Shown: piece after piece, positions 4,948 to 23,961 of the stretch
Layout: the number at the start of each line of letters is the position of its first letter
Position numbering within the stretch: the stretch's first letter is position 1
Source of the DNA: Methylomonas sp. ZR1
GTDB taxonomy: Bacteria; Pseudomonadota; Gammaproteobacteria; Methylococcales; Methylomonadaceae
Length of the DNA stretch: 64,000 nt
Direction: 5' to 3'
Assembly: GCF_013141865.1 (NCBI RefSeq)
Contig: NZ_RCST01000001.1
Span: 2,170,001 to 2,234,000 of the forward strand
Notes under the pieces: model-generated
The model's input: the letters and a program-made list of their open reading frames with translations, nothing else
Told to the model about the DNA's origin: nothing
The model's database searches: none
Program-made: the position numbers and the translations under genes

Positions 4948-4971
4948 ACGCCATTCAGAAGGAGAGCCGCT

Positions 4972-5205
4972 ATGACCGCCCAATATTATGAAGCCGTTGC
5001 AGAAATTCCGTTAGACCATTGTCTGCATTTGCAGCTGCCGCCGGAAATACCCGCTGGCCCGGTACGGGTCGCGATTATTTATGATCGGGCTATCGATACC
5101 GCCGGACAAGACATCAAAAACCTGCTGGCCGCGATGCCGGATGTCGGCGACGATGTGGATTTCAATTTGCGGGCTGGAGCAAATAATGATCTGCTATTCT
5201 TCTGA
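4972..5205 (+). CDS. Small antitoxin-like protein, orphan in the DISARM operon
   Basis: A 77-aa protein that starts behind a clear ribosome site (AAGGAGAG, 5-8 bases before ATG), 24 bases after drmMI. The N-terminal half (EAVAEIPLD, LQLPPEIPAGPVRVAIIY) looks like the beta-rich DNA-binding part of small antitoxins of PIN-domain toxins. The segment DIKNLLAAMPDVGDDVDF is also typical of such antitoxins. The last ten residues (RAGANNDLLFF) do not fit the usual polar tail. No toxin gene follows directly. It may be a leftover antitoxin whose toxin was lost, or a real accessory gene of this operon. The relationship is a pattern judgement, not a tested homology. Confidence 0.55.
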   Translation: MTAQYYEAVAEIPLDHCLHLQLPPEIPAGPVRVAIIYDRAIDTAGQDIKNLLAAMPDVGDDVDFNLRAGANNDLLFF

Positions 5206-5228
5206 AATTAAATATTCGTTTTCTTTCC

Positions 5229-6308: not shown

Positions 6309-6573
6309 GGATGATATTGAGCAAGGTTTGCTACGCAAAGGGTTTGTGAAAAAAGAAGGCGACCATCATTTTTTCATCTACTACAACCTGAAAGGCGAGA
6401 AAACCGCTGTTTTCACCAAAACCAGCCATACACCCAAAATGCGTGAGATTCCGGATAATCTTTTGGGATTGATGGCAAAGCAATGTCGGCTTAATAAAGC
6501 GGAGTTTTTGAATTTGGTGGATTGCCCACTGAGTCGGGACGAATACGAACAAAAATTGGCCTCAAACAAATAA
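6295..6573 (+). CDS. HicA/YcfA-like small RNA-binding or RNase-fold protein
   Basis: A 92-aa basic protein. ATG 6295 is preferred over TTG 6280 because GGAGG lies about eight bases before it. The order LLRKGFVKKEGDHHFFIYY, then a basic turn, then KTSHTPKMREIP and a C-terminal helix resembles the dsRBD-like fold of HicA mRNA interferases. There a histidine after a small turn (here the HH of GDHHF) is catalytic. It overlaps the end of the 359-aa gene by 14 bases, and drmA begins 12 bases after its stop, so all probably belong to one transcript. It could act as a toxin, as an RNA-binding helper of the defence locus, or as part of an embedded toxin-antitoxin pair. The fold call is moderate. Confidence 0.7.
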   Translation: MPRRKDDIEQGLLRKGFVKKEGDHHFFIYYNLKGEKTAVFTKTSHTPKMREIPDNLLGLMAKQCRLNKAEFLNLVDCPLSRDEYEQKLASNK

Positions 6574-6585
6574 GGGACTTTTACG

Positions 6586-9500
6586 ATGACGCTGTATGCG
6601 CCTACCCCCACTTCGATTCGCGACGAATTGACTCAAATGGTCATTCGCGATCTTCTCGGCCCAGCTGGTGGTGTTGAGGAAGAGTTAAATCAATACGAAG
6701 ACCATGCCTACCAACGTTATTTGGTCGGCATGTTGGCGCCGAAGGACAAGGAGGTAGCCGGCGGCGAATTGGACGAATTGGCAACGGGCGACGGCGATGA
6801 GGGGGAAGAAGGCAATACTGATGCCGGCGTACCCGCGGGCAGCACGTACTTTCCGTCTTCAATGGGTTTGAGCTTTGTGGTGGCATCCGAAACGGCTGAA
6901 ATTCTGGTTGCTGCCGAATGGGGGCAGTACCTGCGGATTAAAAGCGATAATCAACAGAACAAAGATGGCAATCCTGCCAATGTCTGGAAACGCAGGCCGG
7001 TGGTTGCGCCAGAATTACCGTTAGTGTTGAAGGAAGGCAATATTGCCCCACAAGCGCTTCATCCCGATCACCCCTTGGTGTTGCTGCAAGGACGCATCCG
7101 TTCTACTGCTGACGGTTGGGTGGTTACGTTATTCATGATCAATCAACAGGAAGAACGTAAAGGCAGAAACGAACCAAAAGACGAAGTGTGGGTATTTCAA
7201 CCCAAGCTAAAAGTGTATGCCTCGGATAGCCAACCGATTTTTGTGCAGCGCAAAAACGTCAAACTTGATTTGTCGAAAATGGACCCGTTGACGCGCGAGG
7301 AATCCGAAACCTTGGAAATGCTGTATCGGCATCAACGCGAGTTTGCGGTCGGCCACGGCATTTCGGTGCATGCCACGTTACCTGAGCCTTTGGCAGAGCG
7401 AGCCAGCCAGGTGGAAACCGAATGGGTGCCTTGTTTTGAAGTGCCGCAACAAACCCCGCGGTCTGCGGCAGACGATGAAAATCTCGCCGGCTTGAGTATG
7501 GACATGAAGGCCCTGGCAGATTTACCCAAGGAAGGCTTAATTGCCAGCTTGCGCCATATCGAGACAGCCTACCGAGTGTGGATCAAAGCGGAAGCCAACA
7601 AATTGACCTTGCCGGCTGAGAAGCTAGACGGCCATGAAGAAACAGCGCGCCGAGCCGTGGAGCGTTGTACTCGGGCCTTGCAACGGATCAAAGCCGGTAT
7701 TGATTTAATCGAAAACGATACTCTGGCGGAGGAGGCCTTTCGATTTGCCAATCGCGCGATGTGGCAACAGCGGATTCACACCACTTTTTCCCGAAAGGTG
7801 CGTAAAAAGGAAATCAAGCTGGAAGATGGTACTTCGGCTTTAGATATTGCCAAAAACCGCAGCTGGCGTTTGTTTCAGTTGGCGTTCGTATTACTGAATT
7901 TACCGAGTCTGACCGATTTACACCACTCTGATCGTAGTCATGAAACCGATGCGGTTGCCGACTTGCTGTGGTTTGCCACAGGTGGTGGTAAAACCGAAGC
8001 TTATTTGGGTTTGACGGCCTATACCCTGGCATTAAGACGCTTACAAGGCGAAATCGAGGGGCGACGCAGTGATCATGGTGTGGCGGTTTTAATGCGCTAT
8101 ACCCTACGCTTATTGACGTTACAGCAGTTTCAACGGGCGGCTGCTTTGATGTGCGCCTGTGAGTCGATTCGTCGGGTTGATATTGGCAAATGGGGCGAAA
8201 CACCCTTCCGCTTGGGACTGTGGGTGGGTAATAAAACCACTCCCAATACCCTTGCCGCTGCAGCCAATTCTTTAAGGCAGCGCAATGTCGGTGGCAGACC
8301 GTCGGCCTCCGGTACACCGCAACAAATCACGTCCTGTCCTTGGTGTGGTTGTGAGATCAAGGAAAAACATTTGCGGGTCTATGAAGCACCCAGCGACATT
8401 GGTCGCTGCGTCACCTATTGTGGCGACGATTTAGGACGATGTGAGTTTTCCGAAGCCAAAGCACCCAAGGAAGGTTTGCCGGTGATGGTGGTGGATGAAG
8501 AAATATATCGTCGGCCACCCTCGCTATTGATTGCCACTGTCGACAAGTTTGCGCAAATGCCCTGGAAAGGCGAAACGCAAATGCTGTTTGGCAAGGTTTC
8601 GGAGGTGTGTGATCGGCACGGGTTTCTGTCGCCGGAAATCGATGATGGGCAATCCCATCCTTCCCGTAATGGTTTGCCGTCAGTCAAAAATCGGCCCCAT
8701 GGAGCGTTACGGCCACCAGATTTGATTATTCAGGACGAATTACATTTGATTAGCGGGCCATTGGGCTCAATGGTTGGGCTCTACGAATCGGCGGTTGATG
8801 AGCTGTGCTCTTGGCAAGTCGACGGCAAGAAGGTGCGACCCAAGGTTGTGGCTTCGACAGCGACGATTCGTCGTGCGCCGGATCAGGTTCAAAAACTGTT
8901 TGTGCGTAAACTAGAAGTGTTTCCGCCGCAAGGCACCAGTATCAGAGATAGCTTTTTCGCCATTCAACGACCGACGGGGCCTGAGTATCCTGGTCGTCGG
9001 TATTTAGGTATCAATGCCTTTGGACGGCGTTATCCGGTAGCGATGATTCGTAGCTATGTGGCGCATATGGCTGCGGCGCAAGCGCTTTATGATAAATACG
9101 GTCGCTTGGCTGATCCATGGATGACCCTGGCTGGATACTTCAATTCCATACGCGAATTGGCCGGTACGCGTCGACTGGTCGAAGATGATATCCGCGCCCG
9201 TCTCCGCGATGCCGATCAACGAGGATTGGCAAAGCGTCGGGTACGAATGGGCGCAGTGGAAGAGCTGACTTCGCGTAAATCCGGCTCGGACATTCCAAAG
9301 ATATTGGATAGGCTGGAGGCCGTTTTTGATAAGGAACTGGAAGTACAGCGTGCTGCGGAGCGTAAAGCCAATCAGCCCGTTAGTTCTTCGATGCCTTACG
9401 ATGTCATTCTGGCAACCAATATGATTTCGGTAGGCGTGGATATTGACCGTTTAGGTCTAATGCTGGTCGCCGGTCAACCCAAAAACACTTCTGAATATAT

Positions 9501-10077
9501 TCAGGCTACTAGCCGTGTGGGGCGTTCATCGGACGGGCCTGGCTTAGTCTGTACGGTATTCAACTGGGCGCGTCCACGCGATCTGTCGCATTACGAACGC
9601 TTTGAACACTATCATGAAACCTTTTACAAACATGTCGAAGCCTTGTCCGTAACGCCATTTTCCGCGAGGGCACTGGATCGTGGTTTGTCAGGTGTCATGG
9701 TCGGTTTGATGCGCTTATGGGATGAGCATTTGAACGAAAATGCCGCGGCTGGCCTGGTAGCGGATACAGACGCATTTTGGAACATGATGGCTGATGTTTT
9801 AGCCAAGCGAGGCGTTAATGCCACTCATGATCCTGCTGTCGCTGAACGCATCAAGGATATGCTGGATAGACGCCGAGATGAATGGTTGTGTCGGGTGCAT
9901 AACCAAAAAGATCATCAGCTTTGTTACCGCTCCGAGGGAGGCGCGACTGTCGGCTTGCTGGAATTGGCCGATGACAAAGAGTGGAAGCTATTTACCTGTC
10001 TGAGTTCGCTGCGTGACGTGGAAGGCACCGTCGATCTGGTGCTGGATCAGCGCACCACAGGTTTACACACGGATTAA
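6586..10077 (+). CDS. drmA: DISARM helicase DrmA
   Basis: A 1163-aa superfamily 2 helicase, the core DISARM ATPase. The Walker A motif is ATGGGKTEAYLGL near residue 465. The DEAH-like box reads IIQDELHLISG near residue 715, and motif III is VASTATIRRA. The C-terminal helicase half carries ATNMISVGVDIDRLG and YIQATSRVGRS (motifs V and VI). A CPWCGC element near residue 585 suggests a bound zinc between the two helicase halves. DrmA acts with DrmB on incoming phage DNA. The start ATG follows AGGGA by eight bases. drmB begins 10 bases after its stop, which fits an operon. Length and motif order are normal for the family. Confidence 0.93.
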   Translation: MTLYAPTPTSIRDELTQMVIRDLLGPAGGVEEELNQYEDHAYQRYLVGMLAPKDKEVAGGELDELATGDGDEGEEGNTDAGVPAGSTYFPSSMGLSFVVASETAEILVAAEWGQYLRIKSDNQQNKDGNPANVWKRRPVVAPELPLVLKEGNIAPQALHPDHPLVLLQGRIRSTADGWVVTLFMINQQEERKGRNEPKDEVWVFQPKLKVYASDSQPIFVQRKNVKLDLSKMDPLTREESETLEMLYRHQREFAVGHGISVHATLPEPLAERASQVETEWVPCFEVPQQTPRSAADDENLAGLSMDMKALADLPKEGLIASLRHIETAYRVWIKAEANKLTLPAEKLDGHEETARRAVERCTRALQRIKAGIDLIENDTLAEEAFRFANRAMWQQRIHTTFSRKVRKKEIKLEDGTSALDIAKNRSWRLFQLAFVLLNLPSLTDLHHSDRSHETDAVADLLWFATGGGKTEAYLGLTAYTLALRRLQGEIEGRRSDHGVAVLMRYTLRLLTLQQFQRAAALMCACESIRRVDIGKWGETPFRLGLWVGNKTTPNTLAAAANSLRQRNVGGRPSASGTPQQITSCPWCGCEIKEKHLRVYEAPSDIGRCVTYCGDDLGRCEFSEAKAPKEGLPVMVVDEEIYRRPPSLLIATVDKFAQMPWKGETQMLFGKVSEVCDRHGFLSPEIDDGQSHPSRNGLPSVKNRPHGALRPPDLIIQDELHLISGPLGSMVGLYESAVDELCSWQVDGKKVRPKVVASTATIRRAPDQVQKLFVRKLEVFPPQGTSIRDSFFAIQRPTGPEYPGRRYLGINAFGRRYPVAMIRSYVAHMAAAQALYDKYGRLADPWMTLAGYFNSIRELAGTRRLVEDDIRARLRDADQRGLAKRRVRMGAVEELTSRKSGSDIPKILDRLEAVFDKELEVQRAAERKANQPVSSSMPYDVILATNMISVGVDIDRLGLMLVAGQPKNTSEYIQATSRVGRSSDGPGLVCTVFNWARPRDLSHYERFEHYHETFYKHVEALSVTPFSARALDRGLSGVMVGLMRLWDEHLNENAAAGLVADTDAFWNMMADVLAKRGVNATHDPAVAERIKDMLDRRRDEWLCRVHNQKDHQLCYRSEGGATVGLLELADDKEWKLFTCLSSLRDVEGTVDLVLDQRTTGLHTD

Positions 10078-10087
10078 GGAAACGACG

Positions 10088-11932
10088 ATGAACGAACTTG
10101 GCGAACTACGCCCCAGCCAGTTAATTTTTACTTTTGGCATTGGCTCGTTAGTCGATTTGCCGAATATGTCCGCTTTGGTGATGGGACTGGACGACTGGGA
10201 TACTCGGTATTGTAAGGAGATCGAAGAAGACCGCTTGATCGCCGCGGTACAAAAGCGCCTCGGTGCACAGATGAATAGGCTTTACATGCCGCCAATAAAG
10301 TTGGATAGCATGGACCGTGATCCGACGGCTCCAGCTATCGGTGTGCCAGTGGTGCCTTTTCCGCGTTGGATGCGCTGTTCGTTATGTGACACCTTGGCGA
10401 CAGTGGAGTCGGGGGTTTTTAAGTTGATTCAAGACCCTTATCGTCCTGATCGGACGGAATATGTGCATCAAGGCTGTTTGAAAAGCCAGGGTGGGCGCTC
10501 TCCATCGGCTTTGTCGGTACGATTTTTACTGGCATGTCGCGAGGGGCATTTAACCGATTTTTCTTGGTTAAGTTTTGTGCACAAAGGCAATGTCCCTTGT
10601 CGCCCGGCCACATTGACTATGCGGGAATTCGGAGCGTCAGGGGATGCTTCTGACATTATTGTCGAATGCCATGGGGGATGCGGAATGTCAAGGCGTATGG
10701 CTGACGCTTTTGATAGAGACAGCTACAAATATGCATGCTCAGGACATCATCCGCACTTACGCTTGGTTGAGCACGATTGTAAAGAGGAAGCGAAACCCAT
10801 TTTGCTTGGAGCATCGAATAGTTGGTTTCCAATTGCTCTATCCGCGTTATCCATCCCGCGTGCCACTGACAAATTGGGAAAATTGGTTGAAGAACAGTGG
10901 GCCAAGTTGATGAACGCGAATTCGTTAGCGAAACTGGGTTTTTATCGAGAGGAGCAACAGACCTACCAATCGCTAATTCCGTTATTTGCGGAATTTTCTG
11001 ACGAAGAAATCTGGGTGGCCATTGAAGAAAAACGCGCAGGACAACAGAGCGCTCTGCCTGCAGAAGATTTGAAGCTGCCAGAGTGGATGGCTTTTTCAAA
11101 TCCGGATTCATCCAAGGAAAATCGAGATTTCAAATTAAAGCGAGTATCACCGCCAAAAGGGTTTGAGGCGTTTCTCGAAGACACGGTCTTAGTGGAACGA
11201 ATCCGGGAGGTGCGGACTTTGTTGGGATTTACCCGCATCGAATCTAACGCTGATTTTGCGGAAGCAACAATCATTCAAGATGGTCGTATGACCAAACTTT
11301 GTCGGGAAAATCCAAACTGGTTGCCGGCAGCGGAAGTGCGGGGCGAAGGTTTGTTTTTACGTATCCGAGAAGATGTTCTTCTGGCCTGGCAAGCGAAAGA
11401 TGAGGTCAAGCAGCTTGAGCAAGAGTTTTTTGAGTCACATAAGGCCTGGCGCCGACTGAGAAAACTTGAACCCGTACAAGATGGCTTTCCAGGTATCCGA
11501 CTGATTCTTTTGCACTCGTTATCTCATGCTTTGATGCGGCAAATCGTTTTAGACTGTGGGTATACAGCTTCCAGTGTTAGAGAGCGTTTGTATTCGCGCA
11601 ACCCTGGAGAAGATGGCGGGCCTATGGCTGGCATATTGTTGTACACCGCGGCGCCAGATAGTGAAGGCACGTTAGGCGGCTTGGTCGAATTGGGTGATCC
11701 ACTCACTTTAGGCCGGCACCTTCAACAAGCGCTAGAGAGTATGCGCTTATGTGCGTCCGATCCGTTGTGTTCCGAACATAGACCCGATACGTTGGGTAGA
11801 GGCATACACGGTGCTTGCTGTCACGCTTGCCAATTTGCCGCGGAAACGTCATGCGAACGAGGCAATAGGTATCTGGATCGATCAGTACTTGTCGATACAT
11901 TTTCCGCCCGCGGAACAGCGTTTTTTGAATGA
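10088..11932 (+). CDS. drmB: DISARM protein DrmB (DUF1998)
   Basis: A 614-aa DUF1998 protein, the partner of DrmA. ATG 10088 is chosen over upstream GTG 10013 because it follows TAAGGA closely and gives the family start MNELGELRPSQLIFTFGIGS. A C-rich segment (MRCSLCDTLA) lies near residue 100 and a second one (ACCHACQFAAETSC) near the end; both are likely zinc sites. In DISARM, DrmA and DrmB form a complex that binds and scans phage DNA. The stop overlaps the start of drmC (ATGA at 11929-11932). Nothing looks broken. Confidence 0.92.
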   Translation: MNELGELRPSQLIFTFGIGSLVDLPNMSALVMGLDDWDTRYCKEIEEDRLIAAVQKRLGAQMNRLYMPPIKLDSMDRDPTAPAIGVPVVPFPRWMRCSLCDTLATVESGVFKLIQDPYRPDRTEYVHQGCLKSQGGRSPSALSVRFLLACREGHLTDFSWLSFVHKGNVPCRPATLTMREFGASGDASDIIVECHGGCGMSRRMADAFDRDSYKYACSGHHPHLRLVEHDCKEEAKPILLGASNSWFPIALSALSIPRATDKLGKLVEEQWAKLMNANSLAKLGFYREEQQTYQSLIPLFAEFSDEEIWVAIEEKRAGQQSALPAEDLKLPEWMAFSNPDSSKENRDFKLKRVSPPKGFEAFLEDTVLVERIREVRTLLGFTRIESNADFAEATIIQDGRMTKLCRENPNWLPAAEVRGEGLFLRIREDVLLAWQAKDEVKQLEQEFFESHKAWRRLRKLEPVQDGFPGIRLILLHSLSHALMRQIVLDCGYTASSVRERLYSRNPGEDGGPMAGILLYTAAPDSEGTLGGLVELGDPLTLGRHLQQALESMRLCASDPLCSEHRPDTLGRGIHGACCHACQFAAETSCERGNRYLDRSVLVDTFSARGTAFFE

Positions 11933-12765
11933 CCAACGTGCGCAAAGATTTATTTGAATCGATTGATAAGCTAGTCAAAAAAGCACCGGCTGATTGGATG
12001 ATAGCCGCATGCGAAACACTTCGGTCGGTTGATTCTGATACGTCATCAGACCGGGTGATCAAAAAACTACCGTTAACTAATAATGCCGATCTTTCATTTT
12101 TGATTGGCGAAACGGTGCGAATGGCTTCCAACACCATGTCTTGGGAGGCATTGAGCTGGGCTCTTGATTCGAGTTTTGAAATTTATCAGCAAAGCTTAGC
12201 CTCTCAACGTATCGAATTACTTTGGTCAGGCCCAACACCGGTTGCACAGATTCCTGCCCGCCGAATCGATCAGGCGCTATACGATTTAATTGCTAATGCT
12301 AAAAGCGAAATCTTGCTGGTTACCTTTGCTGCGTCTAGGATTCAGCGGCTTGTTAATGAGTTGGTCAATGCTCGACAGCGTGGTGTAAAAATCCGACTGA
12401 TCCTTGAGTTCGAACAAAGCTCTGAGGGGCAATTAAGTTACGATGCACTCAAGGCTTTTCCAGAGACCTTTGTTCAAAATACTGAAGTTTATTGCTGGCC
12501 AATAGAGAAACGCGATAGAAATCAGGCCGGACGTCCAGGAAAACTTCACGCTAAGTTAGCTATTGTTGACGATACGGTTTTGATTTCCAGTGCAAACCTG
12601 ACGGATGATGCGTTTAATCGAAATTTGGAAGTTGGCGTCATGATCCAAAACAACGAGTTTCTTATAAATACGAAAAACTATATTGGGTCGCTGATTTCAT
12701 GCGGAATTTTAAGCCGGTTAACAACCATGGTCCCGATAGTACTGGCGCCGAGCCCCACTGTATAA
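11929..12765 (+). CDS. drmC: DISARM phospholipase D-like protein DrmC
   Basis: A 278-aa protein with one HKD motif near residue 203 (KLHAKLAIVDDTVLISSANL), the signature of phospholipase D-type nucleases and lipases. PLD nucleases with a single motif act as dimers. DrmC is the third core DISARM gene and is reported to be the least needed for defence. It overlaps drmB by four bases and is the last intact gene of the operon. Its base composition is more AT-rich than that of drmA. The start MTNVRKDLFESIDKL is fixed by the overlap. Confidence 0.9.
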   Translation: MTNVRKDLFESIDKLVKKAPADWMIAACETLRSVDSDTSSDRVIKKLPLTNNADLSFLIGETVRMASNTMSWEALSWALDSSFEIYQQSLASQRIELLWSGPTPVAQIPARRIDQALYDLIANAKSEILLVTFAASRIQRLVNELVNARQRGVKIRLILEFEQSSEGQLSYDALKAFPETFVQNTEVYCWPIEKRDRNQAGRPGKLHAKLAIVDDTVLISSANLTDDAFNRNLEVGVMIQNNEFLINTKNYIGSLISCGILSRLTTMVPIVLAPSPTV

Positions 12766-12766
12766 C

Positions 12767-12985
12767 CTTCGTCAGTTAAGGCGCTGCAATCAAACCGGTT
12801 TGCAGGAAGTGGAAGAATTTATCGAGCGGGAAGCGCTATATGGCTTGGGTTGCGGGCTAATTGAGCAGTTGCTGGCTTCGGTTTTGATCGCGCCCGGCGC
12901 AAGGCTGTGGACGTTGGACAAGCACTTGGCGAGACTGGCCGAGCAATTTGGCGTAGCTTATCAAACATCGCCGCCCGCGAATTGA
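12767..12985 (+). pseudogene. Fragment of a VapC-like PIN-domain toxin
   Basis: The frame encodes the end of a PIN domain: LRQLRR, then EEFIEREALYGLG, then LLASVLIAPGARLWTLDKHL and ARLAEQFGVAY. In intact VapC toxins these parts are separated by more sequence and preceded by an LVDTS-type start with the first catalytic aspartate. Both are missing here, and the middle acidic site reads GLIEQLLAS in place of the usual GxxDxxLLAS. The best start inside the frame is TTG 12800, with no clear ribosome site. I read this as a decayed toxin gene just after drmC. It may once have paired with the orphan antitoxin-like gene at 4972, but that link is a guess. Confidence 0.6.
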
Positions 12986-13003
12986 AATAACAGATTCGTA
13001 ATT

Positions 13004-13033
13004 CGTAGTGTGGGCAAATTTGACCACACTACG
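13004..13033. repeat. Short palindrome after the VapC fragment
   Basis: Arms CGTAGTGTGG (13004-13013) and CCACACTACG (13024-13033) with a 10-base loop. There is no T-run on the + strand side, so it is more like a REP-type palindrome than a classical terminator. It lies between the DISARM transcript and the convergent SAMD9-like gene and could stop either one. Confidence 0.55.
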
Positions 13034-13129
13034 AGACTTTTCATTCGTCCGATTATGTTTCATTAATCGGACCATCCCGTCATTCCAACGGGACATGTAA
13101 AAACACGAAAACGATTTTATCTTCTGAGA

Positions 13130-16100
13130 TTACTCCTCTTTTACTTCCCACGCTCTTAACCCACTATAGCTAAAGCCAAGATAAAAAGAGGCTTTTCTGT
13201 TTTCAAAAAAATTCATTTTATAGTTCTGACCTGGAACAAAAAACGCCTTTAACCCTGTGCCTTCAATTTCAATATAGCCTTTTGCAGCACCTTCGATAGA
13301 AGCAATAACACCATTTAACCGTTTTAAAGCACTCGATTGCGTCCAAAAACCATCATGCCAATCACCAAGATTTTCACGATGGATAAGTTGCTTAACTCCA
13401 CTGCCATTACCCAGCCATTCAAAACAAATTTCATTTTTTCTTCGATATCTAGATCGATCATGACATTCTTTTATGCTCGCTTCTGCATTACCAAAATCTG
13501 TTAACGAGCCAGACATTACTTGCAAAACTTGTAGTATATACAAATAATAAATGGAATCGATTGAGTTAGTATTAATCTTCCAGTATGAAATTTTCTCTGA
13601 AATCTCATCCAAATGAGGCGAAGTCGGCAGTATGCGAATTGCATCAAGCCACATACTTAAGTCCTTGTCTTGCTTTCCCTGTCTAAGATTGTCTTCTAAT
13701 AACTCAACAATTCTATTAATGTGTTTTGGATTTAAATCAGCCCACTTATGATTAACTTGCTTTAGTCTCGTATAAATAATAGAGCGTCGTATTGAAAGTT
13801 TATCGAATGGCGCAATTTTTTCACTATCAAGTAATATGTTCCATTTCTGTAAGGCATCCTCGACATTTCCATATATAACATCCAACTCCGCTTGACAATT
13901 AGCCTCAAATCTACTTCTATGATCTTCTTGCCTAATACGCCTTACTTGATCGAGCAGGTAAGATGCATTTTCAAGAGATTCTCTCAGCCATTTTGGAGAT
14001 TGTATAAAAGTTATTGCATCAATAGGATTGTTGTTAAAATACTTGGCAGCATGATTCAATATTTTAATAATCATTTGCACTTCGCTAATATAGCCATGCT
14101 CATCAATTGGATTAAGCTCGCGATTTTTTGCAAAACTTAACGAAGCCTTTTCTGCTTCTTGTACTATTTTAGCTAAGAATTCTTTTTCATCTAGTTTATC
14201 CTTGTAAATTAAATTATATAATTTATTCCTTATTGCCATTCCTTTCATGTGATGAATCAACGGATCATTATCATTTAAGTCAAGCGCCCTATCAATAGCT
14301 AAAACTGCTTCATCAAAATCCTTTTTTATCACACTATAAAACCTTCCAAGATGAGCCCAGAATTGAGGTTCACCAGGGAACATTTCAGTTAGATAACGAA
14401 ATACAGCTAATTTTCCATTATCGTCGTTAATATCCTCAATAAAATTTGAAAACGACGATTTTTCAGTTCCGAGTAACTCATCGTTATCTCTGAAATAAAA
14501 AACCCTGCACATTAGCTCAATGCTTTCATCGGAAGGCGGTGCATCAAGATTACCTCGACAAAAAACAACAAACTCCTTTGCCCATGTAGATAAGCCCTGC
14601 TTCCAAATATGATCAAAATTATTATTTCCAAAATATTCTGGCGAAAATAAATATGATAAGCATTTTCTTGCGAAAATAACATGACTGATTCGCCATCTAC
14701 CAATTTCATCGTACACTATTAAATCATGAACCCTTGAGTCAAAAGCCTTATCTAACTCGACATGAAGAGTTGCAGAAATATTTAGAAGCTTATGAAACCA
14801 ATTTGGTGATATGCTTCTTTGCCCATAATAATAAGCAATTGATAAAAATATGACTATACGTTTTTGCGCATCACCGATATTATCAAGTCGATATTTTACA
14901 TAATTATCTATACCTTGATAGTCATCTCCGAACATAAGAAAACCGAGCGAGAACGGAGTGCAATCTTTTTTAACTTCCTCCTTTAGTTGATTTAACTTAT
15001 CGCTAGAAATTTCTTTTGAAAGCAAATAGTAGAAGTTATCTTTTTCGTTTTTTGAGAGTTTGTCGCTTAACGTTCTTGTATTTTTTGATGCTTTCTGAAT
15101 AGAGGGTAAATCAAATTTACGCAGCACCTGCAATATGACAACTGGCAAGTATGAAGAAGCTATCTTTTCATATAAAGCATCAGCCTGTCGGTCTGATATA
15201 AGTCCTCCATCTATCAATAGCAGAACAGCAGATTGAGATATATCAGCAACATGACTTAGCCGTATCATGGTTTCCAATGGATCTTTCATATCTTGCAATA
15301 CAATACACGGATATTCCTTGTGCTGATTCCATAATATTCGACGCGCTACTGTTGTCCCCCCAGCACCAGGTATATGATATAAATTTATTCTCAAGTGCCT
15401 TCTATTTCTAAGAGCATCTATAATCAGCCTTTCAAGCTTAACGGTTTCATCTCTGTCAACATCATGTCGATACTTTAGATTGCCCCACGATATTTCGTGA
15501 CCACGCAAAAAGTCTAAATAATTAATATTTTCGGGGAATGCATCATCTCCAACGCCTAAATGCACAATTTCAAGCTCTTCCTTTAACCAAGGTATTTTTT
15601 GTTTCTCAATTGATATAGCTGTGCCTGTTGAAGATGGTATTGAATAACTGCCTTTTTGAAAGTCCAATACCTTTTGACAGTTTTCAAATGTTTGACAAAG
15701 GTGTAACAAAGGCATTTGCAAAAAATCAACTCCATAATTATTCACAATACTTTCGATTGACGAATATTTCTCAGGTGAAACTACTATAAAAGATACATTA
15801 TCTTGATAAGTCGAAACTAAAGAATCTAGAATTGTAGTCAAATAATCTGAAATTAAACCATTTTCTAAAACCATCAAAACTTTAATAGGCTTTGCATTTC
15901 CAATGGCTTTGGATATACGTTCTACCTGCCTTCTAAAATCTCCACTATATTCTTTTAACCATGTGATTCTTTGTTGATTTGACAACAAAGTTTCGTTGCG
16001 CCCCGATAATCCAGATGCAAAATACCAATATGTGCCGAACGAGGCATGTATAGCTGGCGTCTCACCTTTAACAATAATATTTAAGCTCTGCCGATCTACC

Positions 16101-16837
16101 AAGTTATCCTTGCAACTAGACAATAGTCCGCTGTTCTGGCTATCGGGGTCAAAATCAACAACAAACGTCCAGTTAACGAAGCCGAAGTTTTGAAGGAGCG
16201 AGTCTGATTTAAGATTACTTAGAGGCGAAGTTATCAAAAAATAGTAATATTTATCAGAATCAAAATCTCCCATTGCTGACAAGAGAATTTCATTTTGAGT
16301 ATATGATTTTATACCTGAGTAAAAAATCTTATCTTTTTCTCTGAACCATCTATAGATCTCCTCTTCTTTTCTGGAACCTTTTAATGCTTCGGTGTTTTTA
16401 CTGCCTTCCCGGTAGTATAGAGCATCTTTCTTTAAGGTTTTTTCATAAAAATCTTTTAAACCAACACTTATAGTATTGGCTATAGGTATTGTAAATATAA
16501 CAAAATTTTTTTCATTGTAATTAAAAAAATCATAATCAAAGCTCGGGGTATAGCTAACCAGAGAATCGAATTGGCTTCGTAAATCTGCATCATCAGGAAT
16601 ATTATTAAAATCTATTCCAATAAATTCATTATTGTTATCACACCCCTTCTTTACACCCAATATTATGTAGGCATTTGTTTCTCGCGGCGTATTCCACATG
16701 CTTATAATATCTTTTACAAATTCAGCTCTCGCCTTATCCTTATTTTTGTTCGAATTTGAAAAATACATTTCGCTTTTAAAGTCAATAAAGTCCTTTTCAT
16801 TTAAGTTTATTAATTTTTCAAATGTTTTTAAATCCAT
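13130..16837 (-). CDS. SAMD9-like STAND NTPase with AlbA_2 domain (putative defence protein)
   Basis: A 1235-aa, AT-rich gene unlike its neighbours in codon use. Residues 1-170 resemble the AlbA_2/Schlafen nucleic-acid-binding domain (DFIDFKSEMYF, AYIILGVKKG, ALYYREGSKN). Near 490-500 is a P-loop HIPGAGGTTVARRIL, followed near 530 by a Walker B strand AVLLLIDGG. From about 860 come TPR-like helices (WAHLGRFY, EAVLAIDRALDLNDNDP). The C-terminus ends in a beta-rich, OB-like segment with FYLGFSYSGLRAW. The middle pieces WTFVVDFDPDS and LRGHEISWGN and the C-terminal FYLGFSY recall animal SAMD9/SAMD9L, for which prokaryotic relatives have been proposed. I recall this similarity; I could not search for it. 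Such proteins would be expected to sense infection and arrest the cell. AGGAT lies seven bases before ATG. It stands alone on the - strand next to DISARM. Confidence 0.8.
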   Translation of the reverse strand: MDLKTFEKLINLNEKDFIDFKSEMYFSNSNKNKDKARAEFVKDIISMWNTPRETNAYIILGVKKGCDNNNEFIGIDFNNIPDDADLRSQFDSLVSYTPSFDYDFFNYNEKNFVIFTIPIANTISVGLKDFYEKTLKKDALYYREGSKNTEALKGSRKEEEIYRWFREKDKIFYSGIKSYTQNEILLSAMGDFDSDKYYYFLITSPLSNLKSDSLLQNFGFVNWTFVVDFDPDSQNSGLLSSCKDNLVDRQSLNIIVKGETPAIHASFGTYWYFASGLSGRNETLLSNQQRITWLKEYSGDFRRQVERISKAIGNAKPIKVLMVLENGLISDYLTTILDSLVSTYQDNVSFIVVSPEKYSSIESIVNNYGVDFLQMPLLHLCQTFENCQKVLDFQKGSYSIPSSTGTAISIEKQKIPWLKEELEIVHLGVGDDAFPENINYLDFLRGHEISWGNLKYRHDVDRDETVKLERLIIDALRNRRHLRINLYHIPGAGGTTVARRILWNQHKEYPCIVLQDMKDPLETMIRLSHVADISQSAVLLLIDGGLISDRQADALYEKIASSYLPVVILQVLRKFDLPSIQKASKNTRTLSDKLSKNEKDNFYYLLSKEISSDKLNQLKEEVKKDCTPFSLGFLMFGDDYQGIDNYVKYRLDNIGDAQKRIVIFLSIAYYYGQRSISPNWFHKLLNISATLHVELDKAFDSRVHDLIVYDEIGRWRISHVIFARKCLSYLFSPEYFGNNNFDHIWKQGLSTWAKEFVVFCRGNLDAPPSDESIELMCRVFYFRDNDELLGTEKSSFSNFIEDINDDNGKLAVFRYLTEMFPGEPQFWAHLGRFYSVIKKDFDEAVLAIDRALDLNDNDPLIHHMKGMAIRNKLYNLIYKDKLDEKEFLAKIVQEAEKASLSFAKNRELNPIDEHGYISEVQMIIKILNHAAKYFNNNPIDAITFIQSPKWLRESLENASYLLDQVRRIRQEDHRSRFEANCQAELDVIYGNVEDALQKWNILLDSEKIAPFDKLSIRRSIIYTRLKQVNHKWADLNPKHINRIVELLEDNLRQGKQDKDLSMWLDAIRILPTSPHLDEISEKISYWKINTNSIDSIYYLYILQVLQVMSGSLTDFGNAEASIKECHDRSRYRRKNEICFEWLGNGSGVKQLIHRENLGDWHDGFWTQSSALKRLNGVIASIEGAAKGYIEIEGTGLKAFFVPGQNYKMNFFENRKASFYLGFSYSGLRAWEVKEE

Positions 16838-16872
16838 ATAATCATCCTAATATTTCTCATATAATAAACTAC

Positions 16873-16916
16873 GGTAGGTGTAGGATTCGCGGAACGACAG
16901 CGAATGGCATCCTACC
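16873..16916. repeat. REP-like imperfect palindrome
   Basis: The left arm GGTAGGTGTAGGATTCGC and the right arm GCGAATGGCATCCTACC flank a nine-base loop (GGAACGACA). Pairing is imperfect in the middle. It lies between the SAMD9-like gene (start 16837) and the nuclease-like gene (stop 16965). It has the look of a dispersed REP element and not of a promoter or terminator. Confidence 0.6.
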
Positions 16917-16964
16917 TATCTAACTACAAATATCATAAATCGACAAAAATCTGTTGACGTTAAG

Positions 16965-17840
16965 TCAATACGCCTGCACTCCAAACTTCAATAACAACCT
17001 CGGCAAAATATCGTCCAGATTCAGCACGTCCTTGTCGGTCAGTTCAATCAGGTTGAAATTATATTTCTGGTAAATGGCGAGTTTTTCCTGTTTTCGGGCT
17101 TGATATTTGACGTCGTTTTCGTAACCCCAGAATTCGATATAGACCTTGCCGGTGGGGATGTAAAAGTCGCAGTACATTTCTTCTTCTATCGGCAGTTTGC
17201 GCTCGTAGGCGTGGACGATTTCCGCCATGTACATCCAGTTGTCGATCAACATTTCCGCCTTGGAGCGGACGAAGTGGCCATCGGTGGTACGGTGGGTGGC
17301 TTCGAATTTGTGACGGAAGCTGCCCATTTTGTCGGCGTCGGTTTTGGGTTTGTCGACGCCCTTGATGTTATCGACGTTGTCTTTCAGCGCGCGGTTGCGG
17401 GTGATTTTTTCCGGCCAGCGCACGTAGGGTATACCGGAACGGCTGTCTTCGCCTTGTTCGGCGCCCATCGCCAATCCTTGCTCGGTGACCAGCCAGCCTT
17501 TCAAGCCTTTTTTGATCCAGCCGAGTTCCGACAGGATGTAATTCATTTTGTTGGCGGACAGTTCGAAGTGTTGCCCCAACACGGTGGCGGTTAGCAGCTT
17601 AGCCGCTTCCGGTTTGGCATCGGCGGTTGGCAATTGGAAATCCTCAGGCCAGGCGACGTATTGGCCGTATTTACCTGTCAGGTAGACACCGCCGGCGGCA
17701 GTGCCTGCGTCGGTTAACTGCCATTTGTCCTCTTGTTTCTCGATTAGGCCCAGTGCAGTCAACTGCCCGAACATTTGCTCTTGGGACACGCCGCGCAATT
17801 TGGCCAGTTGGGTGGTAGATAGGCGTTTCTCGTCACTCAT
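16965..17840 (-). CDS. Winged-helix plus PD-(D/E)XK-like nuclease protein
   Basis: A 291-aa protein. The first 140 residues look like two similar DNA-binding repeats (STTQLAKLRGVSQEQMFGQL and a second round ending NYILSELGWIKKGL), each followed by a wing. The C-terminus carries CDFYIPTGKVYIEFWG, then YQARKQEKLAIYQKYNFNLIEL. This D...E-x-(hydrophobic) spacing with following basic helix is typical of small PD-(D/E)XK or Vsr-like nucleases. The gene lies 55 bases after the helicase gene on the same strand, so the two are probably co-transcribed and may act together on DNA. The substrate is unknown. The nuclease reading is motif-based and needs a fold search to be firm. Confidence 0.7.
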   Translation of the reverse strand: MSDEKRLSTTQLAKLRGVSQEQMFGQLTALGLIEKQEDKWQLTDAGTAAGGVYLTGKYGQYVAWPEDFQLPTADAKPEAAKLLTATVLGQHFELSANKMNYILSELGWIKKGLKGWLVTEQGLAMGAEQGEDSRSGIPYVRWPEKITRNRALKDNVDNIKGVDKPKTDADKMGSFRHKFEATHRTTDGHFVRSKAEMLIDNWMYMAEIVHAYERKLPIEEEMYCDFYIPTGKVYIEFWGYENDVKYQARKQEKLAIYQKYNFNLIELTDKDVLNLDDILPRLLLKFGVQAY

Positions 17841-17895
17841 CTCTGTAGTTCTCTAGTTAGATCGGACCAAGTTTAGATCATGCCAAGCGTTGCTC

Positions 17896-20832
17896 TTAGT
17901 CGGCGCTGACTGTTGATTTAACCTTGGCAGCTTTTAGATCGATAAATTGCTCGGTGTGGGAACAGGAAAACGCTGCGTTTTTTCGGTAATGCGAGCAGCC
18001 CCAGAATTGGCCATGCGGTCCTTTACGCAACACCATGGCGCCTTGGCAACGCGGGCAGATCGGTTCGACAAAGTCGCAAAGGCGATTCTCACAAACGCGA
18101 AAGCGGCCTTGGGTTTTAAAACCGCTACCACACCATTGACAAGCCCGCTGCGTGTGATTGCAGAGTGGATATTGGTTGCAGCCAAAAAAGCTGCCGTACT
18201 GGCTATCTCTGGGTACCATCCAACCGGTTTCGCAGGCCGGACAGGGAATATCGGCGATCTGCTCTTGAAAGCCGGGCCCTGTAAATTCGTCGATGCTGAC
18301 GGCATAGTCGCCGTCGACTAATTCCCTGACGAATGGCGACGGGTTCAGGCCGTTGGTGACCAAATAGACGTGATGCCGCGCCCGTGTGAGTGCTACGTAG
18401 AACAGGCGACGCTCTTCGGCATGTGCGAAGGCCTCAGCTTGAGGCAGCAATAATTCCAGCAAGGGATGGGTGGCTTTTTCCGACGGAAAGCCGTGTTCGC
18501 CCTTCTCCAAGCCAAACACGATCACGTAATCGGCTTCTTTGCCTTTGGAGGCATGTACCGTCATGAAGTGCAGTGACAATTGCGGATAGCGGCGCTTTAA
18601 GGCCGCGACATCGGGCCGTTTAAAGTTGAAGCGGGCTAACAGCAACACGCTGGCGGATGGCTTGGCCTTGCTGGCGATGGCATCGAGTGCCGCCTGGATG
18701 CCGGTCAAATCCTGATCGGTTTTGATGAGGGATACGGCGGGCTGTTCGACAAGCCGTAAGCTACGAATCTGTTTGTCGATTTGGCTTGGGTTTTGGGTGA
18801 CAAAACGTGACGCCACTTCACCGATTTTGTTATTGAAGCGAAAGGTTTGATCCAGCACGCTGGTTGCCGTGTCGCCAAAGTGGGCTTGAAAGTCTTTGGT
18901 CAGTGCGACATCGCTGCCGGTAAAGCGGTAGATGGATTGCCAGTCGTCGCCAACGCCAAATAAGCTGGCTTCCACTTGCTGGGCCATCAAGGCTTTCAGT
19001 AAGCGTGCCCGGCTGGCGGAAATATCCTGAAACTCGTCCACCAGTAAATATCTGTATGGCGATTGAAAACGGCCGGATTCGACGTATTCGATGGCCCGAC
19101 CAATCATGTCGTCAAAATCGATGGTGGCATTGTCGCGCAACCGTTGCTGATAGCCTTGGTAGATCGGTTCGAATAAATGCGCGGCGGCGCGCATACGTTC
19201 CTGGTCTTCATGCTTGTCGGCTTTTTCGACCAGTTGTTTGATGCTGAGGTAAGCCGCTTTGAACAAGCTGAGGATTTGTGCCATCAGTTTGCTGAATTCC
19301 GATACTCGGCCCAGCTGATTCAGTTGGTCGAGTATTTCGTTTTGCGGCAAGGGTTTGAACTGAACGCCGGCAGCTTGTAATTTTTCGCTGAGTACTTCGG
19401 TCAATCGCCCTTGTTGTTTCAGGTAGCTGAAGGTTTCAATCAGCGGTGTTTGATATTTTGCGTGTAGCGCCCGTTTCCAGGCCATGCCAGCAAGGTAGTT
19501 TGTTTGGTCTATAAAAGGCGGCGTTTGATTTAGTTCGTTAACGGCAAAGTGTTCGATGTAAATGCCGTAAGCTGGTAGAAAGAAATCCGGTTGGTAGACG
19601 CGGTAATCCGGACCGGAGGTGTTAACCTGGTAATTGGCCTCGTATTGATAAGCAATCCCTTGTCGATACAAGAAATTGGCAATCTCGCATTCCTCGTAGC
19701 TTTTGACAAGCTCGCCTTGCAGTGTACGAATATCGTTTTCGAGGATGTAGGCATTGTAAGCGCCTAAACTATTGAAATTGAATTGGCTTTTGTAGGGATA
19801 GGCAAAACGTAGAAAATAGGTCAACAGCCGCGAGCGATAGCGTTCATCTTCCAGCAGGCTTTGAATTTGACTATCGACAAACGCAGCACGCAGGACGTCG
19901 TCTTCCGCCATTTTGTCAATGGCCGGCCTAGCACCTTCAACCTGGCTAATGATGTCTAAACCCAGGCCATGAAAGGTTTTCACTGTCAGGTTTTGAATCC
20001 CTAATTTCGACCGGATGCGTTCGCCCATTTCATCCGCCGCTTTGCGGGCATAGGCCAGCATCAAAATTTGTTCGGGTTTTGCCAGACCAGCTTTGATTAT
20101 ATAACCGGCGCGGCCGATCATGGTACTGGTCTTACCGGTACCCGCGCCGGCCAGCACCAGGTTGTGCTGTTCGTCGATGATGCAAGCCTTGCGTTGCGCT
20201 TCGGTCAGCGGGTTGGTTTCGACCTGATCAAAAAAATCCCTGAACAGCTGGGCTTGTCGATCGATAAACGCCTGATTGAAACAGCTGATCTGCTCATCCA
20301 TGTTGTCTATTAACGGACGGACATGCTGATAGTCTTGATGCAACTCGCTCGGCAAATACTGTAAACCATCAGGACGCTTCAGGCCCGCCGCTAACGTAGC
20401 ATGGCGTTTAATCCAATGAGCCGCCAAGGTACGGCGAATATAATGCTGGCCGGAAAAGATCAATCTGGCTTCTTGGGCTGCTTGTATCAGGGCAGGGGCA
20501 AACTCTTGGTAGAAACGCTGGATGCGTTGATTGACGTGGCGTTTCATCGATACTTGTAACAATGCCGACTGCTTTTTATCGACGCCGCCAAAGCGTAAGG
20601 TCTGGCCATCTATCTGAGAAATCAACAACGTGTCCCAAAACCAACCGGACTCGATGCCAATAGCTGGCTGAATACTCAGCACATGATGTTGATGCTTCTT
20701 TTGAAACTTGTCCGTCAACACTAGCGTTTCTTGGTCGAGAGCAAAGGCGTGAAAGCGACGATCGTTAGCAAACCACTTGGCCCATTGACTCAGTTGGTAA
20801 CGTGGTAAGTGGTTAGGCGTTGGCGTCTGCAT
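17896..20832 (-). CDS. HelD/UvrD-like superfamily 1 helicase with C-terminal zinc ribbons
   Basis: A 978-aa DNA helicase of the helicase IV type. The N-terminal 150 residues lack motifs, as in HelD. Walker A is LAGAGTGKTSTM near residue 230. Motif II is LLVDEFQDIS near 600, followed by GVGDDWQSIYRFTGSD, and MTVHASKGKEADYVIV marks the C-terminal motor. The end has at least two Cys4 units (CPACETGW...C; CQWCGSG; CPRCQGAM) related to topoisomerase zinc ribbons. Start ATG 20832 follows AAGGA by five bases. In this island the helicase and the nuclease-like gene downstream look like a two-gene DNA-processing unit. A housekeeping repair role is also possible. Confidence 0.85.
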   Translation of the reverse strand: MQTPTPNHLPRYQLSQWAKWFANDRRFHAFALDQETLVLTDKFQKKHQHHVLSIQPAIGIESGWFWDTLLISQIDGQTLRFGGVDKKQSALLQVSMKRHVNQRIQRFYQEFAPALIQAAQEARLIFSGQHYIRRTLAAHWIKRHATLAAGLKRPDGLQYLPSELHQDYQHVRPLIDNMDEQISCFNQAFIDRQAQLFRDFFDQVETNPLTEAQRKACIIDEQHNLVLAGAGTGKTSTMIGRAGYIIKAGLAKPEQILMLAYARKAADEMGERIRSKLGIQNLTVKTFHGLGLDIISQVEGARPAIDKMAEDDVLRAAFVDSQIQSLLEDERYRSRLLTYFLRFAYPYKSQFNFNSLGAYNAYILENDIRTLQGELVKSYEECEIANFLYRQGIAYQYEANYQVNTSGPDYRVYQPDFFLPAYGIYIEHFAVNELNQTPPFIDQTNYLAGMAWKRALHAKYQTPLIETFSYLKQQGRLTEVLSEKLQAAGVQFKPLPQNEILDQLNQLGRVSEFSKLMAQILSLFKAAYLSIKQLVEKADKHEDQERMRAAAHLFEPIYQGYQQRLRDNATIDFDDMIGRAIEYVESGRFQSPYRYLLVDEFQDISASRARLLKALMAQQVEASLFGVGDDWQSIYRFTGSDVALTKDFQAHFGDTATSVLDQTFRFNNKIGEVASRFVTQNPSQIDKQIRSLRLVEQPAVSLIKTDQDLTGIQAALDAIASKAKPSASVLLLARFNFKRPDVAALKRRYPQLSLHFMTVHASKGKEADYVIVFGLEKGEHGFPSEKATHPLLELLLPQAEAFAHAEERRLFYVALTRARHHVYLVTNGLNPSPFVRELVDGDYAVSIDEFTGPGFQEQIADIPCPACETGWMVPRDSQYGSFFGCNQYPLCNHTQRACQWCGSGFKTQGRFRVCENRLCDFVEPICPRCQGAMVLRKGPHGQFWGCSHYRKNAAFSCSHTEQFIDLKAAKVKSTVSAD

Positions 20833-23875: not shown

Positions 23876-23961
23876 TCATTTTCAACAGTTACAGTGCTCG
23901 GGTGTTCCCAGAGTCGCAATGCAGGCTGCGTGATGTTTAAACAGGTCCTTTATCGCTCAAT

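What the first reader, a model, noticed from the sequence alone, without database searches (positions are those of the whole stretch)
13130..16837. Bacterial SAMD9/SAMD9L-like STAND NTPase beside DISARM
The protein combines an AlbA_2/Schlafen-type domain, a P-loop reading GAGGTT, TPR-like helices and a C-terminal OB-like segment (FYLGFSY). Several of these, with WTFVVDFDPDS and LRGHEISWGN in between, recall animal SAMD9/SAMD9L antiviral proteins. It is AT-rich and stands alone in a defence island. Prokaryotic relatives of SAMD9 have been proposed, but this gene next to a DISARM locus could be a little-studied abortive-infection system and the most interesting single gene in the window.
Basis: partly seen in the sequence, partly recalled or inferred. 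Interest (0 to 1): 0.85.

Follow-up and report, generated by a model that had tools for sequence, protein, structure and literature searches.

The report
Bacterial SAMD9-like STAND with nuclease front
A bacterium carries a single large gene that is a true relative of the animal antiviral protein SAMD9, including a nuclease-type front end, in a spot where related bacteria carry other anti-virus-type genes; it probably stalls or kills infected cells, but that is untested.

Summary
In detail: one intact 1235-aa ORF at 13130-16837 (-), 34% GC against 50% around it, beside a DISARM locus. Its only PDB sequence matches better than E 1 are SAMD9 chains (2.8e-11; 2.8e-39 with a profile of bacterial relatives), and AlphaFold2 models of residues 1-640 and 425-1235 both rank SAMD9 first (8.7e-20, 4.6e-26), far ahead of Avs5 or other STANDs. 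It keeps the family's odd P-loop (HIPGAGGTT, Gly for Lys) and an ExxxxDFK nuclease-type motif, invariant in the six AlbA_2-type proteins aligned, from five phyla. Other bacterial relatives carry a TCAD9/kinase-like front end on the same core. The DISARM pairing is not conserved. The local slot, however, is a cargo site: in genus mates it holds a Tmn-type gene, a GmrSD_N/AlbA_2 gene, unknown genes or transposase-type genes, and in one mate a retron adjoins the same flanking gene. Most likely mechanism: a TPR/OB-sensed STAND switch that releases an AlbA_2 (Schlafen/SAMD9-type) RNase, probably against tRNA, giving abortive infection. Membership is shown; defence and RNA cleavage are inferred. Bacterial SAMD9 homologues were reported in 2017, so this is a new member of a known kind.

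The parts
13130..16837 (-). SAMD9-family STAND protein, 1235 aa, single gene
   Evidence: ORF; SAMD9 by sequence (2.8e-11), profile (2.8e-39) and fold
16388..16798 (-). AlbA_2 / Schlafen-type domain, residues 14-150 (proposed RNase effector)
   Evidence: Pfam PF04326 2.6e-11; profile A3 matches one PDB protein, CbCash (9ylu), at 5.7e-5
16775..16798 (-). ExxxxDhK nuclease-type motif EKDFIDFK, residues 14-21
   Evidence: E14, D19, F20, K21 invariant in 6 of 6 AlbA_2-type proteins aligned; not found at the front of the 7 relatives with the other front end
15563..16300 (-). SIR2-like domain, about residues 180-425, without NADase motifs (boundaries approximate)
   Evidence: No GAGxS or TTNxD type motif in this region; model of 1-640 matches SAMD9, then EfAvs5 (SIR2-STAND), and a KomBC chain at 1.3e-3
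15110..15514 (-). STAND-type P-loop NTPase domain (nSTAND_NTPase5), residues 442-576
   Evidence: Pfam PF25199 2.8e-5, below the curated cut-off; relatives L015 and L022 above it
15350..15376 (-). Variant Walker A HIPGAGGTT, residues 488-496 (Gly for Lys, upstream His)
   Evidence: GG[TS] form in 12 of 13 proteins that have the region (L016 has GAS), upstream His in 13 of 13
13508..14500 (-). Helical TPR-like array, about residues 780-1110 (proposed sensor)
   Evidence: All-helical in the model; Pfam TPR matches weak; structure match to a STAND-TPR protein 6mfv 3.6e-9
13133..13462 (-). C-terminal beta-rich OB-like domain, about residues 1126-1235
   Evidence: Strands in the model; weak sequence match to the SAMD9 C-terminus
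12758..12993 (+). Remnant of a VapC/PIN-like gene (C-terminal part only) at one edge of the cargo slot
   Evidence: One frame reads to a stop without the N-terminal half; full-length 127-aa ORF in genus mate L042. The VapC/PIN name is recalled from the sequence, not from a call
13047..13072 (.). REP-like palindrome GTCCGATTA-N7-TTAATCGGAC at the slot edge
   Evidence: 8 places in the genome with up to 2 mismatches, control 0
16965..17840 (-). PDC-S69 candidate-defence gene, the usual neighbour of the slot
   Evidence: PADLOC 9e-109; full-length DNA match in 6 of 11 genus mates searched, degraded in a seventh, not matched in four
17896..20832 (-). UvrD-type helicase beyond the slot
   Evidence: Pfam UvrD-helicase 1.6e-48
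898..12765 (+). DISARM locus on the other side of the slot (DrmMI 898-4947, DrmA 6586-10077, DrmB 10013-11932, DrmC 11929-12765; DrmD 2-901 cut by the window edge)
   Evidence: PADLOC

Best explanation
The gene encodes a stand-alone prokaryotic SAMD9-family protein with the parts AlbA_2 nuclease-type domain - degenerate SIR2-like domain - variant nSTAND5 NTPase - TPR-like helices - OB-like end. It most likely works as a single-gene anti-phage switch: the TPR/OB part recognises an infection signal, the NTPase core changes nucleotide-bound or oligomeric state, and this frees the AlbA_2 domain to cut RNA, most likely tRNA, so that translation stops and the phage cannot multiply. Shown here: intact gene, SAMD9 family membership, order of the main parts, complete ExxxxDhK motif, spread over several phyla, position in a cargo slot. 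Inferred: defence role, oligomerisation, RNA as substrate (by analogy with SAMD9 and Schlafens), the trigger.
For: Only SAMD9 chains among PDB sequence matches better than E 1; profile of bacterial relatives to SAMD9 2.8e-39, collinear over profile positions 74-893; both structure models rank SAMD9 first by many orders of magnitude. ExxxxDFK invariant in 6 of 6 AlbA_2-type proteins aligned; in SLFN14 the ExxxxExK motif is required for RNA cleavage and SAMD9 is said to have a cryptic E-EhK motif (PMC12215978, passages); hSAMD9 cuts tRNA-Phe and its nuclease residues are needed (PMC13245274, passages). SIR2 motifs absent, which points to AlbA_2 as effector. The same slot in genus mates carries a Tmn-type gene (G119) and a GmrSD_N/AlbA_2 gene (G115); a type II-A retron adjoins the same PDC-S69 gene in G110. 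Low GC and absence of the full protein from the 236 other family genomes searched fit recent arrival.
Against: No function has been tested. AlbA_2-type relatives are not beside established defence systems in the five loci with flanks, and in four of seven genus mates compared at the slot no PADLOC-recognised gene was seen (two of these four were scanned by Pfam only). The catalytic residues of hSAMD9 could not be aligned one by one: the AlbA_2 profile alone does not find SAMD9 in the PDB. None found in phage or viral contigs. In PMC5445408 AlbA_2 was proposed to bind DNA, not to cut RNA.
Confidence: 0.68

Rival explanations
1. The AlbA_2 domain binds nucleic acid without cutting it, so the protein is a DNA/RNA sensor or a transcriptional/translational regulator, still within a STAND defence or stress circuit.
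For: PMC5445408 (parts 1-2 of 4 read) proposed DNA binding for SAMD9 AlbA_2.
Against: The ExxxxDhK motif is fully invariant across 6 proteins that are 33-40% identical to the window protein in this domain, as expected of an active site; SAMD9 work now treats the domain as a tRNase (PMC12331169 abstract and passages).
Confidence: 0.15
2. The SIR2-like domain is the effector and depletes NAD+, as in Avs5.
For: EfAvs5 (SIR2-STAND) is the best fold match after the SAMD9 chains for the 1-640 model (9.6e-8); PMC12931631 (passages) reports fold similarity of PaAvs5 to SAMD9.
Against: GAGxS and TTNxD, the motifs described for Avs5 (PMC12931631 passages), are absent from the SIR2-like part of the 13 proteins that have it (two GAGxS hits lie in P-loops); the SIR2-nSTAND5 protein L006 does carry TTNFD.
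Confidence: 0.05
3. The gene has a host role (stress signalling, growth control) or stabilises mobile DNA, and its presence in a defence slot is incidental.
For: AlbA_2-type relatives mostly sit alone among metabolic or transport genes; one is on a cyanobacterial plasmid between transposase genes (L022).
Against: Patchy presence (own genome only among 237 family genomes for the full protein), AT-rich insert, and other defence-type genes in the same slot in some genus mates.
Confidence: 0.1
4. Recently acquired passenger that is no longer, or not yet, functional.
For: A copy with a broken frame (L018, a MAG) and a C-terminally truncated copy (L022) exist in cyanobacteria.
Against: The window ORF is intact over 1235 codons with the main motifs and a plausible ribosome site.
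Confidence: 0.04

Closest known systems
Human SAMD9 / SAMD9L (animal antiviral factors)
   Same: Same order AlbA_2 - SIR2-like - GGT P-loop NTPase - TPR-like - OB-like; best sequence, profile and fold match
   Different: No SAM or DEATH-type Pfam hit in front; the hSAMD9 tRNase region is residues 156-385 (PMC12331169), about 230 aa against about 165 here; trigger and substrate unknown. The one animal sequence used falls on a very long branch, and grouping it with the AlbA_2-type bacteria is weakly rejected (p-AU 0.037)
Bacterial SAMD9-family proteins of Mekhedov et al. 2017 (PMC5445408)
   Same: Same core and same GGT P-loop with upstream His
   Different: Many bacterial members described there have a kinase instead of AlbA_2. 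Here 7 of 14 loci lack AlbA_2 at the front, and Pfam finds TCAD9 there in 6 of 6 scanned, 4 of them above its cut-off.
Avs5 (AVAST type 5, SIR2-STAND)
   Same: N-terminal effector, central STAND NTPase, C-terminal helical sensor; best fold match after SAMD9 for residues 1-640
   Different: Avs5 effector is an active SIR2 NADase with a standard GKT P-loop (PMC12931631, passages); here SIR2 motifs are missing, the P-loop is GGT, an AlbA_2 domain is added, and at E up to 0.1 the only PADLOC match is PDC-S50
CbCash (PDB 9ylu, 9ylv, 9ylx)
   Same: The only PDB match of the AlbA_2 profile up to E 10, at 5.7e-5 over 142 residues
   Different: Chain of 297 aa, without room for STAND/TPR/OB parts; the call gives only the name, so what CbCash does was not learned here
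PADLOC candidate PDC-S50
   Same: AlbA_2 part matched, 6.6e-13 over residues 5-156
   Different: Profile of 387 positions; the STAND, TPR and OB parts are not matched

Membership tests
SAMD9 family | AlbA_2 domain at the N-terminal side | tested here: met
   Pfam PF04326 above cut-off
SAMD9 family | SIR2-like domain between AlbA_2 and NTPase | tested here: met
   Region is collinear with SAMD9 in the profile match, and the 1-640 model aligns to SAMD9 over 518-541 columns in the five best chains; no Pfam SIR2 hit in the window protein itself
SAMD9 family | P-loop with GG[TS] in place of GK[TS] and a conserved upstream His | tested here: met
   HIPGAGGTT at 488-496; feature described in PMC5445408
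SAMD9 family | TPR array after the NTPase | tested here: inconclusive
   Weak Pfam TPR hits below cut-off; all-helical model that also matches TPR proteins
SAMD9 family | C-terminal OB fold | tested here: inconclusive
   Beta-rich end in the model; sequence match to the SAMD9 C-terminus weak (i-Evalue 0.88 with profile; 2.3e+02 alone)
SAMD9 family | Long collinear similarity to SAMD9 beyond a generic NTPase | tested here: met
   2.8e-39, best stretch over profile positions 74-893 of 1215
SAMD9 family | tRNase residues (hSAMD9 E184, E196, E218, D241; K198, K214, R221) | tested here: inconclusive
   E-x4-D-F-K is present and invariant and may match the E196-x-K198 pair (inference), but the part of hSAMD9 that holds these residues did not align by sequence
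SAMD9 family | tRNA anticodon cleavage activity | not testable with these tools
   Needs biochemistry
Avs5 (SIR2-STAND) | Active SIR2 motifs GAGxS and TTNxD | tested here: not met
   Absent from the SIR2-like region
Avs5 (SIR2-STAND) | Canonical GK[TS] Walker A | tested here: not met
   GGT instead
Schlafen-type nuclease domain | ExxxxExK catalytic motif | tested here: met
   Present as ExxxxDFK, Asp for the second Glu, within the D-(D/E)hK form cited in PMC12215978
DISARM | Is the gene a DISARM component? | tested here: not met
   Opposite strand, no Drm model matches it, and genus mate G116 keeps DrmA-DrmC next to the slot with other cargo in it

The most novel reading that the evidence does not exclude
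Bacteria hold a complete, working SAMD9-type immune protein: a modular chassis (degenerate SIR2 - GGT-type NTPase - TPR - OB) that accepts alternative effectors, an AlbA_2 anticodon-type RNase as in animals or a kinase-like TCAD9 domain, and that moves between phyla as a one-gene anti-phage system. Such proteins would be the pool from which animal SAMD9 arose.
Probability: 0.4. Interest if true: 0.85.

Novelty: new member of a known kind. Interest (0 to 1): 0.62.

Why it matters
[quoted passage not shown] Here are intact bacterial proteins with an AlbA_2 nuclease-type front end as well. They can be expressed in E. coli, challenged with phage and studied with escape mutants, which makes the sensing step and the effector of this family directly testable. 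The alternative front ends (AlbA_2 or TCAD9) on one core also suggest that the effector part is exchangeable, as in Avs proteins.

Tried and rejected
Generic STAND/TPR explanation: rejected, since the nearest non-SAMD9 fold matches are about 12 orders of magnitude weaker for residues 1-640 and about 17 for residues 425-1235.

DISARM accessory gene: rejected as a conserved feature.

SIR2 NADase effector: not favoured, motifs absent.

Phage- or virus-borne gene: no relative in 50,697 phage records or in viral contigs by three scans (seeded by a few short peptides, so not exhaustive). Plasmid records gave 4 matches, all to the AlbA_2 part only.

First genome-contig scan with the single sequence found nothing; the alignment A1 found 14 loci. 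Those scans start from a few short peptides, so counts are lower bounds.

Position of animal SAMD9: a tree of the core with one human sequence leaves it on a very long branch. Tests of one clade: AlbA_2-type plus SAMD9 p-AU 0.037, AlbA_2-type alone 0.057, TCAD9-type plus SAMD9 0.058. No claim about origin is made from it.

Hairpin upstream of the gene (16862-16932): a single copy in the genome, so not a repeat family there; the 13047-13072 palindrome has 8 places.

Weak match G503 (24% over 657-780, one internal stop): set aside as probably chance; the three ORFs of 150 aa or more listed in that locus read like an ABC transporter ATPase, its permease and a metabolic enzyme (my reading).

In checking this report I corrected: CbCash is known to me only by name; PADLOC covered only part of the neighbours; one profile match after SAMD9 is a designed protein.
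Full report
WHAT IS THERE. The ORF at 13130-16837 (-) is real, intact and 1235 codons long. It has 34.2% GC while the window outside 12767-16964 has 50.4%, and AGGA lies shortly before its ATG. The genome (G000, 5.18 Mb, 2 contigs) has three matches to Pfam AMO over the cut-off, one with an internal stop, while 14 control genomes have none; from this I take the host for a methane oxidiser (recalled meaning of the family; no call names the organism). To one side lies a DISARM locus, to the other a PDC-S69 gene and a UvrD-type helicase.

FAMILY. By sequence alone, phmmer against all PDB chains gives six SAMD9 sequences at 2.8e-11 to 1.1e-9 and then only one match, at E 1.3. A profile of the window protein and seven relatives (A2) gives SAMD9 at 2.8e-39, best stretch over profile positions 74-893, with a weak second stretch at the C-terminus; the next matches are a designed protein at 0.0012 and TPR proteins at 0.007 or worse. 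AlphaFold2 models made from window and locus sequences only, residues 1-640 (mean pLDDT 79, pTM 0.50) and 425-1235 (84.9, 0.70), both rank human SAMD9 first: 8.7e-20 and 4.6e-26. The best others are EfAvs5 SIR2-STAND at 9.6e-8 and a STAND-TPR protein at 3.6e-9. The rmsd values of the top rows are large (8.5 and 23.9), so relative domain placement is not established.

ANATOMY. AlbA_2 (residues 14-150) carries EKDFIDFK at 14-21. In 6 of 6 AlbA_2-type proteins aligned, E14, D19, F20, K21, K42, D43, N49, T50, P51, R52 and others are invariant. SLFN14 needs its ExxxxExK motif for RNA cleavage, and the authors liken it to D-(D/E)hK and mention a cryptic E-EhK motif in SAMD9 (PMC12215978, passages). 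The AlbA_2 profile finds one PDB protein up to E 10, CbCash (9ylu), at 5.7e-5; I know only its name from that call. SAMD9 itself is not found by this part alone. The SIR2-like part lacks GAGxS and TTNxD type motifs. The NTPase has HIPGAGGTT at 488-496. Mekhedov et al. 2017 (PMC5445408, parts 1 and 2 of 4 read) name Gly-for-Lys in the P-loop and a conserved upstream His as features of the SAMD9 family; here GG[TS] occurs in 12 of 13 proteins that have the region (L016 has GAS), and the upstream His in 13 of 13. The TPR-like and OB-like parts rest on predicted structure and order, not on Pfam cut-offs.

RELATIVES. Of 14 loci found with alignment A1 in the 84,980-species collection (seeded by two peptide patterns, so a lower bound), six match from residues 1-6 on: Latescibacteria L015 (38% identity), a Proteobacteria MAG L016 (36%), a Bacillota MAG L017 (33%), Dehalococcoidia L019 (30%), a Cylindrospermum plasmid L022 (36%, C-terminal end missing) and Hormoscilla L018 (frame broken, left out of the alignments). 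Pfam finds TCAD9 there in 6 of 6 scanned, with 4 of 6 above the curated cut-off; L025 was not scanned. L021 lacks the front because the contig ends. Pfam AlbA_2 is above cut-off in 4 of 4 AlbA_2-type relatives scanned (L015, L017, L019, L022; L016 was not scanned). In a tree of the core, five AlbA_2-type proteins from four phyla form a group (99/98); the TCAD9-type L020 is their neighbour (95/95) and the AlbA_2-type L019 lies outside both. This suggests exchange of front ends, though all AlbA_2-types as one clade is not firmly rejected (p-AU 0.057).

RARITY. The full protein is found only in the own genome among 237 family genomes (two further matches are AlbA_2-only), only in the own genome among 369 class genomes (others: an AlbA_2-only protein, the SIR2-nSTAND5 protein L006, a probable chance match), and among 398 phylum genomes in the own genome plus two TCAD9-type relatives, with three further partial matches. 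Phages: none. Plasmids: 4 records, AlbA_2 part only. Viral contigs: none in three scans.

THE SLOT. DNA of window 5000-24999 was compared with 11 of the 20 same-genus or same-species genomes listed. In 6 of 11 both sides of the slot are matched, and each has other cargo: G119 a 550-aa gene matching the first part of Tmn at 2.1e-80, a 647-aa ORF without match and an ORF between them that I read as a transposase (here the far side is the helicase, PDC-S69 being unmatched); G115 a 588-aa gene with GmrSD_N and a C-terminal AlbA_2 domain (NsnA 2e-30 in PADLOC); G116 an 813-aa ORF without match, between DrmA-DrmC and PDC-S69 as here; G127 (same species) three ORFs without match; G105 a DDE transposase and small ORFs; G103 an ORF with a Y1_Tnp match just below cut-off. 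In G110 only the PDC-S69 side is shared, and next to it lies a type II-A retron, RT plus its NDT partner. Of these 7 mates 3 have a PADLOC-recognised gene, 2 have unknown genes only, and 2 have transposase-type genes (these two were not scanned with PADLOC). One edge of the slot holds the C-terminal remnant of a VapC-like gene whose full-length form is in G108 and a REP-like palindrome with 8 places in the genome. So the SAMD9-like gene is exchangeable cargo at a site that, in some mates, holds defence genes.

CONTEXT ELSEWHERE, FOR AND AGAINST. AlbA_2-type (20 neighbours by Pfam; 5 of them by PADLOC): L018 lies among glycine-cleavage genes, L022 between two DDE transposases, L019 among metabolic and transport genes, L016 near a SoFic-like Fic gene and a phosphatase, L015 near an AAA_14/DUF4143 gene (weak PDC-S01) and transport genes. 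So 0 of 5 sit beside an established multi-gene defence system; PADLOC matches were seen at L015 and L016, while the L019 gene tested had none and L018 and L022 were not tested with PADLOC. L017 has too little flank. TCAD9-type: L012 is directly beside type I restriction genes and PDC-S02, L013 beside a PDC-M54A-like gene in which I read a GGVGKS P-loop; for L020, L023, L026, L027, L028 ten neighbours gave no PADLOC match (the ORF picks in the GC-rich genomes are rough).

MECHANISM. Human SAMD9 is described as a tRNA endonuclease that depletes tRNA-Phe once activated, with putative catalytic residues E184, E196, E218, D241 and nucleic-acid-binding K198, K214, R221 (PMC13245274, passages; PMC12331169, abstract and passages). 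That review describes STAND proteins as C-terminal sensor, central NOD, N-terminal effector. The same logic fits here: TPR/OB sensor, GGT-type NTPase, AlbA_2 effector. RNA, probably tRNA, is the likeliest substrate; which tRNA cannot be said, since the 2'-O-methylated G read by SAMD9 is made by FTSJ1/WDR6. PMC12839542 (passages) cites a preprint on anti-phage bacterial Schlafens, which I did not see.

PRIOR ART. Bacterial SAMD9 homologues were reported in 2017, many with a kinase in front (PMC5445408). [quoted passage not shown] PMC12931631 notes fold similarity of Avs5 to SAMD9 (passages). I found no experimental study of a bacterial SAMD9 homologue in the listings of searches (open-licence library; no preprints, few subscription papers). 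Papers PMC12169576 and PMC12851939 were seen as passages only.

VERDICT. True member of the SAMD9 family with an AlbA_2 front end, in an exchangeable cargo slot that also takes defence genes; function inferred. Interesting because testable, not a new kind.

Noticed in passing
window 12758-12993: C-terminal remnant of a VapC/PIN-like gene (name recalled); a full-length ORF of the same sequence is present in genus mate L042 1556-1939.
   Followed up: partly
window 16965-17840: PDC-S69 candidate gene is matched in full in 6 of 11 genus mates and flanks a cargo slot; it may mark a defence hot spot worth surveying.
   Followed up: partly
L036 1414-3180: GmrSD N-terminal domain fused to a C-terminal AlbA_2 domain, in the same slot of genus mate G115.
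   Followed up: no
L033 728-3169; L034 1229-2980: Unrecognised 813-aa ORF, and three small ORFs in a row, in the same slot of G116 and G127; no Pfam or PADLOC match at E 0.001.
   Followed up: partly
L006 145-2853 (-): SIR2_2 - nSTAND5 - TPR protein, 902 aa, with TTNFD and a GSGKS P-loop and no AlbA_2: looks like an active-SIR2 cousin of the SAMD9 core.
   Followed up: partly
window 5229-6308: ORF of 359 aa inside the DISARM locus between DrmMI and DrmA, weak DUF7946 / PDC-M32A match.
   Followed up: no
window 24004-25119 and 29093-29950: SoFic-like Fic gene and a PD-T4-7-like gene: further candidate defence genes in the window.
   Followed up: no
window 13047-13072: REP-like palindrome with 8 places in the genome; genus mate L038 has a Y1_Tnp-like ORF in the slot, and L037 a similar ORF.
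   Followed up: partly
L012 8406-17195; L013 4705-12656: SAMD9-core proteins with a TCAD9-type front end directly beside type I restriction genes, and beside a PDC-M54A-like gene.
   Followed up: partly
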